This document shows positions 10,441-36,260 of a DNA stretch of 43,001 nucleotides, piece by piece. The stretch comes from Candidatus Cloacimonadota bacterium (GTDB lineage: Bacteria; Hydrothermota; E44-bin80). The stretch's first letter is position 1; each line of letters opens with the position of its first letter. The notes under the pieces are model-generated. The model had not been told where the DNA came from. It saw nothing but the letters and a program-made list of their open reading frames with translations, and did no database searches. Where the stretch lies: contig SOIS01000239.1 in assembly GCA_004375965.1 (NCBI GenBank), forward strand, positions 1-43,001, read 5' to 3'. The translations under genes and the position numbers were made by a program.

Positions 10441-13400
10441 ATGAATAAGATAATTTCCTGCATTCTTTTTCTTGTTATCATTTCTTCTCTTTTTGCAGAG
10501 GATATTAGTATACTCAGTTCTTCGGAAAAGGGAATTGCTTTTGAGTTCAGAGTGCCAGCTTTCTCTGTAACTCCATTATTGATTGATAATAAAGAATACA
10601 AAATAATAGATATACGTGGAACAGGTATGATAAATGACATTGGAAAACCTGCCTTGCCTGTAAGATATATTTATGTTGCTCTTCCCTTAGAAACAGAGAA
10701 TGTAAAGATCTATGTAAAGAAAGAAGGGAAACAGACAATAAAAAATGCAAGAATTATTCCTGTTTTCCAAATGACGTGGAAAGACCAGAAAATTGAAGAA
10801 GACCCTGCTATTTATGGAAAAAATGCATATTTCCCTGGTAAGGATTACGAAGTTCTTTATGACAAGATTCTTCTTCATCAAAGGATTGTTAAGATCGCCA
10901 TCTATCCATTTCATTTTAATCCCTATATTAACGAACTAATATCATATAATACTATTAAGGTAAAAATTATGTTTTTGGGTGGAAAACAAAAAGAGGGAGA
11001 ATATAGGTTTCTGGGTATCCCGAATGAGCGGAGGTTAAAAAACCTTATTATTAATTACAATAAAGGACAATCATGGAGGAAAAAGAAGAAGGTTGGTAGA
11101 GGATCACTGCTCAACTATACACCATGGTATAAAATAAAGGTTTCTGAGGATGGGGTTTATAAAATTGACTATAACTACCTGAAGAACCATAACATTAATC
11201 CTGATAATATAGATCCCCGAACAATAAAGGTATACAATGGGGGAAGTTCAGTTCTCAATGATGATATTTTAATTGTACCGGGAGAAAATGATACAATACC
11301 GTATCAGATACCCATATACATACATGGTGAGGATGATGGGGAATTTAATAAGGATGATTATATCCTTTTCTACGGTCTTTCACTTACAGGGTGGGAGAGG
11401 TGTTCTGTAAGCGTCGGTGTTCCGCTCTTTTACAATCCATTTACTGATACCAATGTCTATTGGCTAACCTGGGGAGAAAATGAAGGTAAGAGGATGGAGG
11501 TAGTAGATGGAAGCCCATCCTTCAATGAGCCGTATACTCCATCCTGTTTCAAAAAGACTATACACATTGAAGAGAATCATCTTTGTCCTTCAAAATCAGG
11601 ATTTGGTTGGGTGTGGGAAGAGGTTGTTCTCCCAACAAATGTCAGTTCAATCTCCCGTAATTATGCATTTTCCGTCAAAAATCTTTACAGTGATAGTTTC
11701 GAGGTTTTTACTGCTGTATATGGTGCTACTACTGGAACCCATTGTATTGAACTTCAGATGAAGAGTATCCCATTCAGTGATACCTGCTGGGCAGGTATGA
11801 ATTATACTGCACCATTTACATGGCTTAGCGGTGGAACTAATCTGTCTTCTGGTGATAATACTATTACAGTAAGAGTTCATAAAGGTGGTGGGGGTGATAA
11901 GATATATATAGATTATTTTGAGGTCTCTTTCTACAAGAACTATAAAGCATTTAACAATGTTCTTGAATTCTCTATTAAAGAGGATGCACCGGTTGATACA
12001 ATCTATGAATTTAATCTTAATGGCTTTTCTGAATCTCCCTATATCTTTGATATTACTTCGCCATATAACACCAAAAGGATTACAGGTTCAACATTCAATT
12101 ATGGTACTGTAAAATTTCAGATCTTTGTATCTCAGGAAGAGAAAAAGAAATGTATAGCAACGAAGGTTTTTAAGACACCCGAATCTATCACTGAAGGAAA
12201 TCCAAACTCTCTGAGAAACGTGGATAAAGCCGATTATATAATCGTTACGCATAAAAAATTCTACTATGCAGCATCGGAGCTAAGGGATTGGAGAAGAAAC
12301 CATCTTTTGGGTGTTCAGAATCCTACTATTAAGATTGTAATGATTGACGAGATATTCGACAATTTTAGTTGGGGTCTTAGTGACCCTGTTGCGATCAGGA
12401 ATTTCTTCTATTATGCAGCGAATTTCTGGGAATATCCCCCTGGGTATGTGCTCCTTTTTGGCGGAGGCTCGTACGATTATAAAAATCTATTCAAAAGCCA
12501 GGAGCCCAAAAATAGCATTCCGGTTTATGAAACAGGGGATTATGTGCATTTTCAAGAATTGATGAGTCATAATCCCTGTTATGAAGATTTTTTTACTGAT
12601 TTTACTGGGGATTTACTGTGTGATATTCCTATTGGAAGGATAACTGTTGTAACACAAGAAGAAGCAGGTGATGTAGTTAATAAGATAATTAACTATGAGA
12701 CCAATAACCTTGGTTCCTGGAAAAATAGGATCATTCTTCTCGCTGATGATGAATTTGACTATAAAGGAATTGATGGTCTCTATCGATTCCATATTTCCGG
12801 AACAGAGGGAATATCACAACTTGTTCCTGGCCCGTTTGATCAAACAAAGGTATATCTGACTGAATATCCTGGAACTAATCCCGGAGCAGTTCCGCCTGGC
12901 AGTAAACCACAAGCAAGAAGTGCCTTAATAGAGGCTCTCGATAAGGGTGCTTTACTCGGGACATTTCTTGGACATGGGAACCTGAGGCAGCTAACACACG
13001 AACTTGTTTTTCATAGAGCTGATGTTGGGATGCTGGAGAACGATTACAGGGAACCATTTTTCTATTTTGGCTCCTGCAGTGTAGGCGATTTCGACAGAGC
13101 TGAAGAGGAAAGTATTGCGGACCTTTTGCAGAAAAGTTGTAGAAGGGGTGCAATTGCAACGTTAGCTTGCACAAGGACTTCTGGTTACTCCAGTATCACT
13201 GTACTTGGGAAAGAACTTGTTACTAACATACTTGGAAACAAAAATGCCACACTTGGTGATGGTGTATTTCTTTCAAAAAAGAATGCAAATTTTGGTAAAA
13301 CATATGCATTCTTTGGTGATCCTGCAACACCTTCTTTCCCTGATTCAATTGGTTTTCAGGCAACAATCAGTAGTGAAACCCTTGTTGGAGGAAGGAAAAT

Positions 13401-14373
13401 ACTGATTGATGGTCAGACAGATGATCCGGGATTCAATGGATTTCTATTTGCAGCAGCATATGACCCTATAAAAAGAATAGCCCATCCAGTTCCCACCACT
13501 TCAGACACGATTCGTTATAACCTTCCAGGTAATTCCATCTTTAAGGGTATCTTCAACATAACAGGTGGAAAAATAGATGCTGCATTTTTTGTCCCAACCA
13601 AGCTTGATTCTGGAAATACAGGAAGAATTAGTATGTATATCTGGGGTGATGCAAAGGAAGGCAGACGAAGTCTTGATTCCCTCATAACAGGTATTGATGA
13701 TACACTTTCTACTGATTCAATTCCACCCGACATTGAGATATACCATAGTGGAAAACTTCTTGGAGACGGAATGTCAATTCCCAGTGATGCAGAAATCATA
13801 GGCGTTCTGGAAGATGAGAGTGGAATTGATATAACTGGTAGAGAAAATAGATCAATATACCTTGCTATCAATGAAGATTATACTCATATAAAAAAGATAA
13901 ATGATTATTTCTTCTATGATATTAATAGCTCGACAAAAGGTTCGTTCAGGTATGCTCTTGGGCTCGAGTCAACTATGAAGACTGTTAGGTTGGAGTTTAC
14001 CTGCTACGACAATTGTGAAAACCAGGCTGTTAAAGTTCTTGACTTAAATGTTTATAGTGGAGAGGAATTTAGTCTAAGTAATGTATATAATTTTCCAAAT
14101 CCCTTTAAGAAAACCACATATTTTACATATTATCTTAGCCACCGGAGTTCTGTCACACTTACTGTGTTCACCATTACTGGGAAAACCATTTATAAAAAAA
14201 ACATTGTTTGTGAACCTGGTTTTAACAGGATTTTATGGGATGGGAGGGATGCAGATGGTGACAGGATAGCTAATGGTGTCTATTTTTATAAAATAAAGGC
14301 ACAAGCATCTGATGCACAGGATAATTTCCAAAGTAAAGCAGAATATAGAGGAAAGATTGCAATAGCTCGATAA
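10441..14373 (+). CDS. Gingipain-like C25 cysteine peptidase, PorU-like
   Basis: A 1310-residue secreted protein with signal peptide (about 1-19, ending SLFA). The N-terminal part resembles C25 propeptides (DIGKPALPVRYIYVALP). The peptidase core spans about 590-970. The catalytic histidine is H845 in FLGHGNLRQ and the nucleophile is C879 in FYFGSCSVGDFDRAEEESIA, the normal gingipain spacing. The C-terminus (1217-1310) starts NFPNPF and ends in GVYFYKIKA, the FlgD-like/type IX sorting-domain pattern. PorU is the type IX sortase that cleaves such domains and links cargo to the cell surface, and a PorV/PorQ-family gene follows directly as in Bacteroidota. A plain secreted C25 protease is the alternative. 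The start lacks a strong ribosome site, although GAGGTAAGA lies just before the ATG. Confidence 0.85.
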   Translation: MNKIISCILFLVIISSLFAEDISILSSSEKGIAFEFRVPAFSVTPLLIDNKEYKIIDIRGTGMINDIGKPALPVRYIYVALPLETENVKIYVKKEGKQTIKNARIIPVFQMTWKDQKIEEDPAIYGKNAYFPGKDYEVLYDKILLHQRIVKIAIYPFHFNPYINELISYNTIKVKIMFLGGKQKEGEYRFLGIPNERRLKNLIINYNKGQSWRKKKKVGRGSLLNYTPWYKIKVSEDGVYKIDYNYLKNHNINPDNIDPRTIKVYNGGSSVLNDDILIVPGENDTIPYQIPIYIHGEDDGEFNKDDYILFYGLSLTGWERCSVSVGVPLFYNPFTDTNVYWLTWGENEGKRMEVVDGSPSFNEPYTPSCFKKTIHIEENHLCPSKSGFGWVWEEVVLPTNVSSISRNYAFSVKNLYSDSFEVFTAVYGATTGTHCIELQMKSIPFSDTCWAGMNYTAPFTWLSGGTNLSSGDNTITVRVHKGGGGDKIYIDYFEVSFYKNYKAFNNVLEFSIKEDAPVDTIYEFNLNGFSESPYIFDITSPYNTKRITGSTFNYGTVKFQIFVSQEEKKKCIATKVFKTPESITEGNPNSLRNVDKADYIIVTHKKFYYAASELRDWRRNHLLGVQNPTIKIVMIDEIFDNFSWGLSDPVAIRNFFYYAANFWEYPPGYVLLFGGGSYDYKNLFKSQEPKNSIPVYETGDYVHFQELMSHNPCYEDFFTDFTGDLLCDIPIGRITVVTQEEAGDVVNKIINYETNNLGSWKNRIILLADDEFDYKGIDGLYRFHISGTEGISQLVPGPFDQTKVYLTEYPGTNPGAVPPGSKPQARSALIEALDKGALLGTFLGHGNLRQLTHELVFHRADVGMLENDYREPFFYFGSCSVGDFDRAEEESIADLLQKSCRRGAIATLACTRTSGYSSITVLGKELVTNILGNKNATLGDGVFLSKKNANFGKTYAFFGDPATPSFPDSIGFQATISSETLVGGRKILIDGQTDDPGFNGFLFAAAYDPIKRIAHPVPTTSDTIRYNLPGNSIFKGIFNITGGKIDAAFFVPTKLDSGNTGRISMYIWGDAKEGRRSLDSLITGIDDTLSTDSIPPDIEIYHSGKLLGDGMSIPSDAEIIGVLEDESGIDITGRENRSIYLAINEDYTHIKKINDYFFYDINSSTKGSFRYALGLESTMKTVRLEFTCYDNCENQAVKVLDLNVYSGEEFSLSNVYNFPNPFKKTTYFTYYLSHRSSVTLTVFTITGKTIYKKNIVCEPGFNRILWDGRDADGDRIANGVYFYKIKAQASDAQDNFQSKAEYRGKIAIAR

Positions 14374-14422
14374 CGAAAACCAAAATACATAAAAACTTGT
14401 CTTCCAGATTGCCTTTTTTTGC

Positions 14423-14451
14423 TTGACATTTTTGGATTTTGTTGATATTAT
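14423..14451 (+). promoter_or_regulatory. Sigma-70 promoter upstream of the PorV-like gene
   Basis: TTGACA (14423-14428), a 17-base spacer, then TATTAT (14446-14451). The TTG of the -35 box happens to be in frame with the gene and could be mistaken for its start. The real start at 14486 lies about 28 bases after the expected transcription start. Because truB follows one base after the gene, this promoter probably drives the truB-ribF-rpsO run too. Confidence 0.82.
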
Positions 14452-14485
14452 AAAAAAAAGAAAAGTAGTTGAAAAGGAGGGAAAA

Positions 14486-15490
14486 ATGAAAGGACTAATA
14501 AAAATAACAATCGTTCTCATATTTATTATTACTCTGTCAACGTTACAATTGCATGGATTTGCATCAGAAGCGGGGGCTATATTCCTGACTATTTATCCTG
14601 GTGCAAGACCCAACGGTATGGGAGGAGCGTTTGTTGGATTAGCGGACGATGCCCTTTCGACATTTTATAATCAGGGTGGAATGGCATTTATAGAGTCAAG
14701 AAATTTTTACCTAATGCATGCAAACTGGCTTCCTGGACTCTACCCTGGTATGTACTATGATATTGTTTCCTATGTGAACCCAATAAAAGGTTGGGGAACT
14801 ATAGGAGGGAACATAATCTATCTTACAACAGGAGAGACAGAGGCAAGGGATGACCAAGGTAATCCTGTTGGAACATTCAGAACATTTGATGTTGCATTTT
14901 CCTTAGGTTATGCGACAAAGATGAGTCCTTTTCTGGGGCTTGGAGTTGGAGCGAAATTTATTTATAGTTATCTTGCTCCTCCTGAAATTGTTGAGAAGGT
15001 TCTTCATATGAGAGGTGGAACAGGTATAAGTTGGGCGGTTGATATTTCTGCACTATACCATACTCCAATACGGGGTTTAAATCTTGGTGCCTCACTGCAG
15101 AATATCGGTCCTTCCATTCAATATGCACAAAGTGGTAATAAGGACCCATTGCCCAGAACACTGCGACTTGGTATAGCTTATAAACTTTTTGATACTGAGA
15201 CAAATAAATTAAATTTTCTTGCTGATATTACGAAGGTTGTTGTTAACTGGAGCGGTGATCTAAAAAAAGAGAATGAAGATACCTGGAAATCTATAGGGAT
15301 GGAATACACATATTTCAATCTTTTAACAGGAAGGATTGGTTATTTTAGAGATTCATCAGGTAAGAGAATAGGTTTTACGTACGGTGGTGGAGTACAGTTT
15401 AAGAATTTAATATTTGATATTGGTGTGGACGATAAACTCTATGAGTTCCCTACTTCGAACTACAGATTTTCTATCTCATACAGTTTTTGA
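14486..15490 (+). CDS. PorV/PorQ-family outer-membrane beta-barrel protein
   Basis: 334 residues from the ATG with AAAAGGAGG six bases upstream. The signal peptide (about 1-28) ends near HGFASEAG. The mature start reads AGAIFLTIYPGARPNGMGGA with VGLADDALSTFYNQGGMAF, the hallmark of the PorV/PorQ family. The remainder alternates like beta strands with turns at regular intervals and ends in an aromatic strand (RFSISYSF), as outer-membrane barrels do. In the type IX system PorV is the shuttle that carries cargo to the PorU sortase. Here it directly follows the PorU-like peptidase, which supports that role. PorV and PorQ cannot be separated by eye. One base separates its stop from truB. Confidence 0.87.
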   Translation: MKGLIKITIVLIFIITLSTLQLHGFASEAGAIFLTIYPGARPNGMGGAFVGLADDALSTFYNQGGMAFIESRNFYLMHANWLPGLYPGMYYDIVSYVNPIKGWGTIGGNIIYLTTGETEARDDQGNPVGTFRTFDVAFSLGYATKMSPFLGLGVGAKFIYSYLAPPEIVEKVLHMRGGTGISWAVDISALYHTPIRGLNLGASLQNIGPSIQYAQSGNKDPLPRTLRLGIAYKLFDTETNKLNFLADITKVVVNWSGDLKKENEDTWKSIGMEYTYFNLLTGRIGYFRDSSGKRIGFTYGGGVQFKNLIFDIGVDDKLYEFPTSNYRFSISYSF

Positions 15491-31328: not shown

Positions 31329-31442
31329 ACACTGCACTTAAATTTTTGCTTGCTTAATTATTTTTTTTCTGTATATTGTATTAGATGGAATAAATTATTA
31401 TACATGGTGTATATCTTAATGAAAACAAAAAAAGGAGGTAGT

Positions 31443-34400
31443 ATGAAACGGTTTCTATTAATAACAGTTCTTTTTTCCCTTTTATACTTTTCGCTCTTTG
31501 GTTTTGGGGATAAACCTCTACTGGTTTTTAATGAGGATACCTCAAAGGCAAAACTTGAAGAAGGCAAACTAACCATCACTATTTCTTTGAGCAAAAAAAC
31601 TTGGGTGAGTCTTGGTGGTGAGATTACTGTAGAGGTAATAGACGCAAACGATAAAGTTCTTTTGACAAAGCAAAAGCATTTACGATTCTTCAGAAGGTCT
31701 ATAACAACAAGTTTTGTCTTTGAAACAGACCTGACAGAAGAGGAGCTATTTACCAATAGGTTGAGGATAACATTTGAAAGCAAAAAAGCAGAAGAAACGC
31801 ATATCTTTGCTATCTCCCAATTGATGGATAAACTTGAACTAATGGTTTTAGGACAGAATAATTTACTTGCTGGAAGTAAGGCATCTATAAGGATTATTAC
31901 AGTGAACTACAGAGGGAAAAAACCTATTAAGAATGCTCTTGTTGAGATCACCTTAAAAGGCGATAAGATTAAGAAAAGGCTTTTTTCGGGAAGAACAGGC
32001 AATAATGGGAGTATTGATGCCATATTTAGTATCCCTGACGTAGAGGATGAAAACACGAGAATAGAAGTATCTGCTGAAACAGCAATTGGAAGTGAAAGAT
32101 TGGAATATAGTATTACAATGAAGAAAGTATATAATATCTATCTTGTAACAGATAAACCTGTGTATCAACCAAATCAGATTATTCATATAAGAAGCTTAAC
32201 ATTACAAAAGCCATCCCTTAAAGCTGCTTCTGGTATTCCTATCACATTAAGCGTGGAAGATTCTAAAGGTAATAAGGTTTTTAAAAAGTCTCTCAAAACT
32301 GACAAATTTGGTATTGCTTCTATTGATTTTCAATTAGCAGATGAACTAAATATGGGTGATTACAGAATAATGGCAGAGATGAAGAATACGAGAGTAGAAA
32401 AAACTGTTAATGTAAAGCGATATGTCCTTCCGAAGTTTAAGATAACCCTTAAAACTAATAAGGATTATTATCTGCCATCTGAAAATTTCAAAGGGGATAT
32501 AAATGTCAAATATTTCTTTGGGAAGCCTGTTGGTGGTGGAAAGGTAAAGATCACATTAAGCAAGTTTGATGTAGGGTTCGAGGCGTTTCAGGAGATAAAA
32601 GGTGAGACAGACAGTAAAGGTAATTACCACTTTGATGTCCGACTTCCATCACATTTTGTAGGAACTCCACTTGAGCAGGGAAAGGCATTCATCAAAATAG
32701 ACATTGAAGTTACTGATAAGGCAGAACATAAAGAAAAACTGACAAACAAGAGAATTGTTGCAAAAAGTGACCTTATTATTGTGCTTATACCAGAAAGTGG
32801 TACTCTTGTACCGGGGTTTGAAAATACTCTTTATGTAATGACAACATATCCTGATGGAACACCGGCAAGGACCACTGTTACACTAAAAAGTGGTAAGATA
32901 ACATTAACTGGAAAGACTGACGACTCTGGTATTGCAGAATTTTCTGTAACTCCAGAAGAGAAAGATGGAATGGCTTTTGATGCTCAAGCAGTTGATGAGA
33001 AAGGAGCAAGCGGTAAGGCAGATGTCTATTTCTCATACGATTCAAGTCTGCCACACATACTTCTCAGAACAGACAAAGGGCTCTATAAGGTTGGTAATAG
33101 GATGAACCTTACTGTTTTATCATCGAAGAAGAAAGGCGTGGTTTACCTTGATATTATAAAGGATAAACAGACTATAATGACAAAGACTGTAAGTATAAAA
33201 AGAGGGGTAGGCAAAATTACTATTCCCTTGACCACAGATTTAAGCGGCAGTATATGGATTCATTCATACACAGTTGCTGCTGGAGAAGAGATAATGAGGG
33301 ATACAAAGGTAGTATATGTTAATCCTGCCAATGACCTATGCATTTCTATTGTTCCTGATAAAAAGATATACAAACCTGGTGAGGAAGGAAAACTCAGGTT
33401 CTCTGTAAGGGATAGGAAAGGACATGCTGTTATATCTGCACTCGGGATCAGCATTGTGGATGAAAGTGTTTTTGCACTGACAGAGATGCAGCCTGGCCTT
33501 GAAAAGGTATATTTTACACTCGAAAAGGAATTAATGGAACCCAAATATGAAATCCATTATCTATCTCCAAGAGAAATAGTAATGTTTGAAACAAAAAAGG
33601 AGATAGAGAAGAGGAAAGAGAAGGCAGCAAAGCTGCTCTTTGCTTCAGTTTCTGAGCTTTCACCTTTCAATATAAAGGAAGATAACACGAGAGAGTTGGA
33701 TAACAGCATCTATGATAAATATCAGTCAAGGGTATGGAATGACCTTTCGAAAATACGAAACGCTGTATATAGATTCTATAGCAAAGAGAAGCGTTATCCA
33801 ACAAAAGAGGAAGGTCTCTTAATACTAATTAGAAAGGATTATTTAATCACGAAGGATATTCTTGACCCCTGGGGTATGGTTTATGAAGTAGTAACAAGTA
33901 GTAATGATCTCTCTTGGTTCGGACTCTTAAGTTACGGACCTGATAAGAAAAAGGATACTGCTGATGACATAAATACAGAGGTTTATAGAAGAGGTTGGAG
34001 TTGGCAGAAGAATGAACTTTTGTTCGAAGCAGAGGAGGGTCTTGGTGGTATTGGAAGAAGAGAGATGCTTGCGAAGAAAGCAAAAGCAGCGCCTGTACCT
34101 GCAAACGGTGATAAACTTGATATTTTAACGTCATCAACAAAAACGGGCAAGAAGGAACCGAGGATAAGGGAATATTTCCCAGAAACCTTCATATTTGAGC
34201 CTGTGCTTATCACAAACAAAAAAGGAGTTGCTGTACTCCCGCTTAAATGGCCTGATTCCATAACTGAATGGAGGATAACAACTACTGCATCAACCATACT
34301 TGGACGGCTTGGAAGTACAACAAAAGGGATAAAGGTCTTCCAAGATTTCTTTGTAGATATAGACCTTCCTGTTTCACTAACGCAGAACGATATAGTTGCT

Positions 34401-36260
34401 GTTCCGGTTGCACTATATAACTATGTCAAGGGCTCACAAAAGATTAATTTGACACTCAAAAAAGAAGAATGGTATGAACTTATTGATGATGCAGAAAAGA
34501 GTGTTACTCTTGAGGAGAACGAGGTTTCTGTTATCTATTTCAGATTAAGGGCAAAGGATATTGGCAGGCATAGTTTCACGGTAAAGGCAATAGGCAGCAA
34601 GATGAGTGATGCAATTAAGAGGGAGATAGAGATTGTTCCAGATGGGAAGAAATTCGAATATATTGTGAGCGACAGGTTAGCAGGCAAGATAACAAAAAGT
34701 GTTTACATACCTGAAGAATCCATAGATGGCTCAGGTAAAATTTTTGTAAGAGTCTTTCCTGGAATGGTCAGTCAGGTTGTGGAAGGTATGGAATCAATGC
34801 TCGGAATGCCTTTTGGGTGTTTCGAACAAACCTCTTCTATTACCTATCCCAATATACTAATCCTTGATTACCTTCGAGGAATAAAGAAAATAACACCTGA
34901 GATAGAGATGAAGGCTGAACAGTATATAAATGTTGGTTATCAGAGATTACTTGCATACGAGGTTACTGGTGGAGGATTTGAATGGTTTGGTAATGTTCCA
35001 GCGAACAGGTTGCTCACCGCATATGGGCTCATGGAATTTTATGATATGGCAGAGGTGTTTGAGACAGACCCTAACATCGTTCCAAGAACACAGAGATGGC
35101 TTATCAACCAGCAGAACAAGGATGGTTCCTGGTCACCTGATAAGAGTTACTGTCATCAGGAGAGCTGGAACAGAATTCAGAAAAACAGGACGCTTCCAAC
35201 TGCATATATTCTCTGGTCGCTTGCAGAAACAGGATACAAAGGCAAGGAGTTAAAGAAGGCTGCAGCATATGTTGAAGATAATCTTGGAAAAGAAGAGGAC
35301 GCTTACATACTTGCTATTTGTGCAAATGCCTTTGTAACATACGAGCCTGATGGAAAAACCACTGAAAAGATAATCAAAAGACTAATTGATAGAAGAATTG
35401 AAGAGAAGGATGTTGTTTACTGGAGTTCAGGAATACCAACGTTCACTTACGCAAAGGGAAAGGGAGCGGATATTGAGGCGACTGCGCTTGCAACCTACGC
35501 ACTCATAAAATATAACAGGTATCCAAATATCCTGAATAAAGCAATAAACTACCTTGTAAAATCAAAGTATCCAGGTAGCACCTGGGGTTCTACACAGGCA
35601 ACATTTCTTGCATTGAAATGTCTGTTAGCATCTCTAAAAGGAAGCACGGAGAATGTGGATGCAACCGTCAGGGTCCTTATCAATGGGAAATCGAAAGAGA
35701 CCATACGACTGGATGAGGATAATGCAGATATAATGTATCTTATTGACCTTACAAAAGAGACGAAAGAAGGTAAAAATGAAGTAACGGTTTCCATTGAAGG
35801 CAAAGGAAATCCAATGTATGAGATTGCATCACGGTACTATATTCCTTGGAAACTTGTTATGCCTGAAAAGAAAAAGGATATCCTTTCTATAGATGTTGAT
35901 TATGATAAGACAACACTTACCCAGGATGATATTGTTACCTGTTCTGTGAAGATAAAAAACAATATCTTGGAATCTGCCAATATGGTTATTGTTGACCTTG
36001 GTATTCCGCCAGGATTCTCCGTTGAAACAGGTGATTTACAAAAGCTTGTTGGTAAGAAAATCGAGAAATATAGTCTGACTGCGAGACAGATTATTCTATA
36101 CATAGAGAGGATAGATTTTAAGCATCCCATTGAGTTGTCTTACAGGATAAAGGCGAAGTTCCCGATAAAGGCAAAGACACCGACATCGAAGGTTTATAAA
36201 TACTATGAACCCGAGGTGGAGACCATAGCAGAACCTATAGATATTGAGGTGAAAGGGTAA
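31443..36260 (+). CDS. Alpha-2-macroglobulin with GspG-like insert in bait region
   Basis: 1605 residues from an ATG preceded by AAAGGAGGTAGT. Signal peptide about 1-22 without a lipobox cysteine. The N-terminal macroglobulin domains include the MG2-type phrase YLVTDKPVYQPNQIIHIRSL. The region near residue 670 (GISIVDESVFAL) ends the A2M_N part. After it comes a charged linker and, at about 760-850, a segment like the globular part of the pseudopilin GspG: NDLSKIRNAVYRFY, KRYPTKEEGL, DPWG (808-811) and a final DTADDI (838-843). A second linker leads to REYFPETFIFEPVL, the start of the conserved A2M domain. The thioester is GCFEQ with C1126. Such proteins trap proteases that cut the bait; here the bait position holds a folded-looking domain. 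No pbpC neighbour is present. Confidence 0.9.
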   Translation: MKRFLLITVLFSLLYFSLFGFGDKPLLVFNEDTSKAKLEEGKLTITISLSKKTWVSLGGEITVEVIDANDKVLLTKQKHLRFFRRSITTSFVFETDLTEEELFTNRLRITFESKKAEETHIFAISQLMDKLELMVLGQNNLLAGSKASIRIITVNYRGKKPIKNALVEITLKGDKIKKRLFSGRTGNNGSIDAIFSIPDVEDENTRIEVSAETAIGSERLEYSITMKKVYNIYLVTDKPVYQPNQIIHIRSLTLQKPSLKAASGIPITLSVEDSKGNKVFKKSLKTDKFGIASIDFQLADELNMGDYRIMAEMKNTRVEKTVNVKRYVLPKFKITLKTNKDYYLPSENFKGDINVKYFFGKPVGGGKVKITLSKFDVGFEAFQEIKGETDSKGNYHFDVRLPSHFVGTPLEQGKAFIKIDIEVTDKAEHKEKLTNKRIVAKSDLIIVLIPESGTLVPGFENTLYVMTTYPDGTPARTTVTLKSGKITLTGKTDDSGIAEFSVTPEEKDGMAFDAQAVDEKGASGKADVYFSYDSSLPHILLRTDKGLYKVGNRMNLTVLSSKKKGVVYLDIIKDKQTIMTKTVSIKRGVGKITIPLTTDLSGSIWIHSYTVAAGEEIMRDTKVVYVNPANDLCISIVPDKKIYKPGEEGKLRFSVRDRKGHAVISALGISIVDESVFALTEMQPGLEKVYFTLEKELMEPKYEIHYLSPREIVMFETKKEIEKRKEKAAKLLFASVSELSPFNIKEDNTRELDNSIYDKYQSRVWNDLSKIRNAVYRFYSKEKRYPTKEEGLLILIRKDYLITKDILDPWGMVYEVVTSSNDLSWFGLLSYGPDKKKDTADDINTEVYRRGWSWQKNELLFEAEEGLGGIGRREMLAKKAKAAPVPANGDKLDILTSSTKTGKKEPRIREYFPETFIFEPVLITNKKGVAVLPLKWPDSITEWRITTTASTILGRLGSTTKGIKVFQDFFVDIDLPVSLTQNDIVAVPVALYNYVKGSQKINLTLKKEEWYELIDDAEKSVTLEENEVSVIYFRLRAKDIGRHSFTVKAIGSKMSDAIKREIEIVPDGKKFEYIVSDRLAGKITKSVYIPEESIDGSGKIFVRVFPGMVSQVVEGMESMLGMPFGCFEQTSSITYPNILILDYLRGIKKITPEIEMKAEQYINVGYQRLLAYEVTGGGFEWFGNVPANRLLTAYGLMEFYDMAEVFETDPNIVPRTQRWLINQQNKDGSWSPDKSYCHQESWNRIQKNRTLPTAYILWSLAETGYKGKELKKAAAYVEDNLGKEEDAYILAICANAFVTYEPDGKTTEKIIKRLIDRRIEEKDVVYWSSGIPTFTYAKGKGADIEATALATYALIKYNRYPNILNKAINYLVKSKYPGSTWGSTQATFLALKCLLASLKGSTENVDATVRVLINGKSKETIRLDEDNADIMYLIDLTKETKEGKNEVTVSIEGKGNPMYEIASRYYIPWKLVMPEKKKDILSIDVDYDKTTLTQDDIVTCSVKIKNNILESANMVIVDLGIPPGFSVETGDLQKLVGKKIEKYSLTARQIILYIERIDFKHPIELSYRIKAKFPIKAKTPTSKVYKYYEPEVETIAEPIDIEVKG

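What the first reader, a model, noticed from the sequence alone, without database searches (positions are those of the whole stretch)
33600..34170. Alpha-2-macroglobulin with a pseudopilin (GspG)-like domain at the bait position
Between the end of the N-terminal macroglobulin part (DESVFAL) and the start of the conserved A2M domain (REYFPETF) the protein should carry a flexible bait that proteases cut. Here residues about 760-850 instead read like the soluble part of GspG: the DLxxIRNAVxxFY helix, RYPTxxEGL, DPWG, then a tail resembling the calcium loop (DTADDI). Charged or Ala/Pro/Lys-rich linkers flank it on both sides. I know of no described macroglobulin with this insert. It might act as a folded bait for a specific protease, or dock the trap on a type II secretion or pilus-like machine.
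Basis: partly seen in the sequence, partly recalled or inferred. Interest (0 to 1): 0.85.

Follow-up and report, generated by a model that had tools for sequence, protein, structure and literature searches.

The report
Protease trap with pseudopilin-like domain at bait
A secreted bacterial relative of human alpha-2-macroglobulin, a trap that springs when a protease cuts its bait, carries a small folded domain related to secretion-machine pilins (with its calcium-binding loop intact) next to the bait, and this layout is conserved across many bacterial phyla although no paper in the open-access library searched mentions it.

Summary
The 1605-aa protein at 31443-36257 (+) is a thioester-containing (GCFEQ) alpha-2-macroglobulin from the WOR-3/Stahlbacteria phylum. 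Residues 766-842 match T2SSG (E 4.5e-7); an alignment of 59 such inserts matches solved GspG/PulG sequences (best E 1.4e-11); the AlphaFold model finds GspG-type pseudopilins as its top 13 PDB matches. The GspG calcium loop, S-x-G-P-D-x6-D-D, is the domain's most conserved part. The domain splits MG6, where complement proteins carry the anaphylatoxin domain.

The interpretation needs correcting. The domain does not replace the bait: directly after it lies a predicted-disordered, fast-evolving linker (852-901) ending where human A2M's bait ends. Docking on a type II machine is unlikely: there is no pilin membrane helix, and in 24 of 24 genomes of the phylum it is the only complete T2SSG domain.

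The architecture occurs in every orthologue read in this phylum and in Armatimonadota, Hydrogenedentota, Poribacteria, KSB3, TA06, Myxococcota and some Planctomycetota. In Chloroflexota and other Planctomycetota the same slot holds predicted transmembrane helices or a plain bait. Most likely: a secreted thioester protease trap with a calcium-stabilised spacer beside the bait. The domain's role is inferred.

The parts
31443..36260 (+). gene of the macroglobulin, 1605 aa plus stop
   Evidence: ORF and translation; aggagg at 31433-31438; Pfam A2M domains
31443..31505 (+). probable Sec signal peptide, no lipobox
   Evidence: hydrophobic N-terminus from residue 4; no lipobox found; cleavage site not predicted
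33462..33644 (+). residues 674-734: conserved, partly helical connector after the first half of MG6
   Evidence: mean pairwise identity 0.51; helices in the model
33687..33995 (+). residues 749-851: GspG (major pseudopilin)-like domain
   Evidence: T2SSG match 766-842 = 33738-33968; model with core pLDDT above 90; Foldseek; PDB profile search
33930..33971 (+). residues 830-843: calcium-loop motif SYGPDKKKDTADDI, with D834, D841 and D842
   Evidence: near-invariant in 59 inserts; aligns without gaps with solved GspG loops
33996..34145 (+). residues 852-901: disordered, fast-evolving linker, the probable bait
   Evidence: pLDDT about 28-45; lowest identity and variable length
34161..34454 (+). 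residues 907-1004: second half of MG6 and start of MG7 (Pfam A2M)
   Evidence: Pfam 915-1004; residue 907 aligns with human A2M residue 730
34767..35624 (+). residues 1109-1394: thioester domain, GCFEQ at 1125-1129 (34815-34829)
   Evidence: Pfam TED E 3e-41; GCFEQ in every relative read through this part in the set
35973..36227 (+). residues 1511-1595: A2M receptor-binding-type domain
   Evidence: Pfam A2M_recep

Best explanation
A secreted, thioester-type bacterial alpha-2-macroglobulin that traps proteases. Shown by sequence and prediction: MG6 is split by an insertion made of a conserved, partly helical connector, a GspG-type domain without the pilin membrane helix but with the complete calcium loop, and a disordered, fast-evolving linker. 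Inferred mechanism: an attacking protease cuts the linker at 852-901 (the bait), the halves of MG6 are untethered as in other A2Ms, the thioester in the TED is exposed and the protease is caught covalently. The GspG domain, held rigid by bound calcium, is a protease-resistant spacer that positions the bait away from the macroglobulin body, and it stays on the N-terminal fragment after the cut. My estimates: thioester trap 0.8; bait is 852-901 0.75; the domain is mainly a calcium-stabilised structural spacer 0.5.
For: Complete A2M domain set and thioester motif. Domain fold. Disorder and fast evolution confined to 852-901. Within the domain the calcium loop and the DPW turn are what is conserved, as expected of a structural rather than a docking role. 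Conserved layout in many phyla. The domain persists in genomes with no other complete T2SSG domain, and T2SSG-type domains occur in other non-pilin proteins. E. coli A2M is activated by untethering of its disordered bait on cleavage (PMC4498604).
Against: No experiment: protease trapping, calcium binding and the cut site are all inferred. The larger model has pTM 0.51, so how the domain sits on the MG body is unknown. One close pair shows no excess dN/dS in the linker, and dS is saturated in the nearest pairs. A spacer does not by itself explain why a pseudopilin fold was kept, or why membrane helices occupy the same slot elsewhere.
Confidence: 0.5

Rival explanations
1. The slot domain is a localisation module: it tethers the trap to an envelope structure such as a type IV pilus or another surface layer, and membrane-spanning inserts do the same job in other phyla.
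For: Membrane helices fill the same slot in Chloroflexota and part of Planctomycetota, in even number in nearly all of the first set. The window's genome has a secretin and PilB/PilT-like ATPases. Pilin-like membrane helices occur in the slots of L162 and L101.
Against: The GspG-type inserts have no membrane helix, and no complete GspG exists elsewhere in 24 genomes of the phylum. Outside the calcium loop and DPW turn the domain is poorly conserved (mean identity 0.29), unlike a docking face. Planctomycetota carry both kinds of insert.
Confidence: 0.2
2. Calcium gate: the domain is folded and protease-proof with calcium; when calcium is low it loosens and adds cleavable sites, so trap activation depends on calcium.
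For: The calcium loop is the most conserved part of the insert.
Against: A stabilising site would be conserved just the same. L027/L080 keep the insert with a degenerate loop.
Confidence: 0.12
3. Folded bait: a specific protease cuts within the GspG domain itself.
For: The domain lies inside the MG6 split.
Against: It is confidently folded, and a disordered linker that looks like an ordinary bait follows it.
Confidence: 0.07
4. Anaphylatoxin-like signal: cuts on both sides release the domain as a free messenger.
For: Same position between the MG6 halves as the anaphylatoxin domain of C3/C4/C5 (topology from own knowledge; placement here).
Against: No anaphylatoxin match in Pfam; the connector on the N-terminal side is conserved; no receptor is known.
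Confidence: 0.04

Closest known systems
Type I (thioester) bacterial A2Ms: E. coli ECAM, Salmonella SaA2M
   Same: Secreted MG-domain protein with a CxEQ thioester and a disordered bait (PMC4498604, PMC5764988)
   Different: Those papers describe no folded domain beside the bait, and type I genes there sit in an operon with the gene for PBP1c; here a GspG-type domain precedes the bait and no partner gene recurs across phyla. By sequence this protein is nearest to CD109, human A2M and complement among solved chains.
Human alpha-2-macroglobulin and CD109
   Same: Best solved matches; the second half of MG6 resumes at the equivalent residue, just after the bait
   Different: The human slot holds a bait domain without a pseudopilin fold (own knowledge)
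Complement C3/C4/C5 with the anaphylatoxin domain
   Same: A small folded domain between the two halves of MG6, followed by the cleavable segment (position only)
   Different: Unrelated fold; no anaphylatoxin match in Pfam
GspG/PulG/EpsG major pseudopilins of type II secretion
   Same: Profile, fold, DPW turn and calcium loop with the same spacing
   Different: No hydrophobic first half of helix 1; embedded in a 1605-aa protein; no other complete T2SSG domain in the genome

Membership tests
thioester (type I) alpha-2-macroglobulin | MG, A2M, TED and receptor-type domains in order | tested here: met
   Pfam matches
thioester (type I) alpha-2-macroglobulin | CxEQ thioester motif in the TED | tested here: met
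   GCFEQ at 1125-1129
thioester (type I) alpha-2-macroglobulin | disordered bait within the MG domain preceding MG7 | tested here: met
   852-901 low pLDDT and fast evolving; prediction only
thioester (type I) alpha-2-macroglobulin | traps proteases covalently after bait cleavage | not testable with these tools
   needs a protease assay
GspG major pseudopilin | T2SSG profile and pseudopilin fold | tested here: met
GspG major pseudopilin | calcium loop with the acidic residues in register | tested here: met
   D834, D841, D842 align without gaps with solved GspG loops; binding itself not tested
GspG major pseudopilin | hydrophobic N-terminal half of helix 1 and prepilin peptidase site | tested here: not met
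   no hydrophobic segment in any GspG-type insert
GspG major pseudopilin | works in a type II secretion system of the same cell | tested here: not met
   no other complete T2SSG domain in the window's genome or 23 relatives, though a secretin and PilB/PilT-like ATPases exist
complement-type protein with anaphylatoxin | anaphylatoxin domain in the slot | tested here: not met
   no anaphylatoxin match in Pfam; the slot matches T2SSG

The most novel reading that the evidence does not exclude
The MG6 bait slot of bacterial thioester macroglobulins is a plug-in site. A calcium-binding pseudopilin-type domain (sometimes apparently repeated), a polytopic membrane bundle, or nothing can occupy it, and the occupant decides where the trap sits or when its bait can be cut. 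The exchange of occupants is shown by sequence; the functional meaning is not.
Probability: 0.35. Interest if true: 0.8.

Novelty: new variant of a known kind. Interest (0 to 1): 0.62.

Why it matters
The bacterial macroglobulins described so far are protease traps with a disordered bait. Here a further folded domain, related to secretion pseudopilins and keeping their calcium loop, is held next to the bait across many phyla, and related lineages put membrane helices in the same place. It parallels, by position only, how complement proteins carry the anaphylatoxin domain. It makes testable whether bacterial traps are calcium-controlled or locally tethered, and warns that a T2SSG match need not mean a secretion system.

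Tried and rejected
Ordinary MG domain: rejected, since the segment matches T2SSG and pseudopilins and lies between the two strand-rich parts of MG6 in the model. Assembly or frame artefact: rejected. A true pseudopilin: rejected, no membrane helix. Type II docking in this phylum: disfavoured. A conserved neighbour as partner: none found across phyla; in part of WOR-3 the gene lies among housekeeping genes. Literature: no held paper has both 'macroglobulin' and 'pseudopilin', nor alpha-2-macroglobulin with bacterial and T2SSG. The CAGE complex paper (PMC12485934) describes a different protein. The two GspG calcium papers known by title (Korotkov 2009 and Lopez-Castilla 2017, in the reference list seen) are not held, so which residues bind calcium rests on own knowledge plus the alignment.

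Full report
Observation. The ORF at 31443-36260 encodes 1605 aa, starting at an ATG with aggagg just upstream. Pfam reads it as a thioester macroglobulin: MG2, MG3, MG4, A2M_BRD, A2M, TED and A2M_recep, with T2SSG (PF08334) at residues 766-842, E 4.5e-7. NCBIfam's gspG model also matches, weakly and far below its cut-off. The closest solved sequences are CD109, A2M and complement.

Is the domain really GspG-like? Yes, by three lines of evidence. 48 of 59 inserts match T2SSG one by one. A profile of the inserts matches GspG/PulG/EpsG sequences in the PDB, best E 1.4e-11. The predicted structure of residues 735-860 (mean pLDDT 85, core above 95) finds GspG-type major pseudopilins as its 13 best PDB matches, best E 2.6e-4, TM 0.60/0.66; only that best match passes E 0.001. 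The calcium loop S-x-G-P-D-x6-D-D is the most conserved part and aligns without gaps with the loops of solved GspG. PDB entry 5o2y is titled as calcium-bound PulG. Calcium binding here is inferred, not shown.

Where it sits. In the model of residues 530-1110 (mean pLDDT 79, pTM 0.51) the first part of MG6 ends near 673, helices follow to about 734, the GspG domain spans about 749-851, residues 852-901 are disordered (pLDDT about 28-45), and strands resume near 908. Residue 907 aligns with residue 730 of human A2M, just after the human bait (bait position from own knowledge). The 852-901 stretch has the lowest pairwise identity of the regions compared (0.18), variable length (26-92) and an Ala/Gly/Met-rich make-up. 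Its dN/dS is 0.17-0.41 in six of seven close pairs; in those six the C-terminal MG6/MG7 part shows 0.02-0.05. The seventh pair (L051/L085) shows no excess (0.10), and dS is above 1 in several comparisons, so the ratios are rough. This stretch is the best bait candidate. The GspG domain is an addition to the bait, not its replacement.

How widespread. In the window's phylum 55 of 147 genomes have an A2M match at E 1e-10 or better; that count includes more distant A2Ms. Every orthologue read through the slot has the insert, though in L027 (the same protein as L080) the calcium loop is degenerate. The genome-contig scan named hosts: WOR-3/Stahlbacteria, TA06, Poribacteria, KSB3, Hydrogenedentota, Armatimonadota, Myxococcota/Deltaproteobacteria, and one MAG labelled Cloacimonadota that groups with the window. 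A profile built from the inserts matches 115 of 131 proteins read; the 16 without a match are exactly those with membrane helices. Most of the 115 were in, or copies of, the training set; the rest of the Armatimonadota sample is independent.

What else fills the slot. In Chloroflexota, part of Planctomycetota and one Bacillota MAG, hydropathy counts give 2, 6 or 8 helices in nearly all (5 and 7 in one each). Further Planctomycetota show 2 to 8, including one with 3. Even counts would leave both halves of the protein on the same side of the membrane; the counts are rough. Other Planctomycetota have GspG-type inserts (for example L151, L153-L156, L166), some of which look repeated. More distant Chloroflexota and Planctomycetota have only a plain linker, in most of them 113-148 residues. 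Two slots hold membrane helices that read like pilin N-termini (L162, L101, by eye). On a quick tree built without the insert columns, GspG and membrane types need 3 changes. In that tree L099, whose slot was not recovered, was labelled GspG by default, and one join is of two long branches, so the count is approximate.

Docking on a secretion machine. The insert is the only T2SSG match above the cut-off in the window's genome, and the only complete one in each of 23 other genomes of the phylum, where the remaining matches cover only the N-terminal pilin part of 110-135-aa ORFs. Most other host genomes tested do have stand-alone GspG-type proteins; the TA06 genome has the insert alone and the two Chloroflexota tested have no match. 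The window's genome has a secretin and PilB/PilT-like ATPases, so contact with a pilus is not excluded. T2SSG-type domains also occur in other large proteins, such as a FecR-like protein (L203) and a second macroglobulin-like protein (L200) (these names read by eye). The fold is reused outside filaments.

Mechanism. Best supported: a secreted thioester trap whose bait is 852-901, with the GspG domain as a calcium-stabilised spacer. E. coli A2M is activated by untethering of its disordered bait on cleavage (PMC4498604); the same step is inferred here. A localisation role is the main rival, suggested by the membrane inserts. Neither is tested.

Known or new. The protein class and the domain are both known. 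The combination, its spread and the exchangeable slot were not found in the papers searched. The library lacks most subscription papers and InterPro architecture lists could not be checked, so prior notice cannot be excluded.

Noticed in passing
L092, L095-L098, L100-L109, slot between DE[AS]VF and FPET: In Chloroflexota, some Planctomycetota and one Bacillota MAG the bait slot of the same protein holds predicted transmembrane helices, mostly 6 or 8 (L090 has 2), so the trap would be anchored by its bait region.
   Followed up: partly
L162, and L101 (end of its membrane bundle): The slot holds a helix that reads like a pilin N-terminus (LLLPAVQQSREAARRMSAMNNLKQIG; IIIIIAPNFLKARAQG), which may link the membrane and GspG types.
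   Followed up: partly
L154, L156, L166, MG6 slot: Planctomycetota slots where the GspG-like unit looks repeated, with only the last unit keeping a clear calcium loop (read by eye).
   Followed up: no
L200, L201, L203: T2SSG-type domains in other large non-pilin proteins: a macroglobulin-like paralogue, a protein of 893 residues and a FecR-like protein (names read by eye).
   Followed up: partly
L027 and L080, MG6 slot: A fast-evolving WOR-3 orthologue keeps the insert but has lost the calcium-loop motif.
   Followed up: no
window 10441-15490: A C25 (gingipain-family) peptidase with its propeptide and an FlgD-type C-terminal domain, followed by a PorV-like protein, which suggests type IX-like secretion in this genome.
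   Followed up: no
L035, L045, L047, L048, L051 and others, flanks: In one WOR-3 clade the A2M gene lies near dnaG- and sigma-factor-like genes on one side and ssb- and rplI-like genes on the other (read by eye); the window's neighbours differ.
   Followed up: partly
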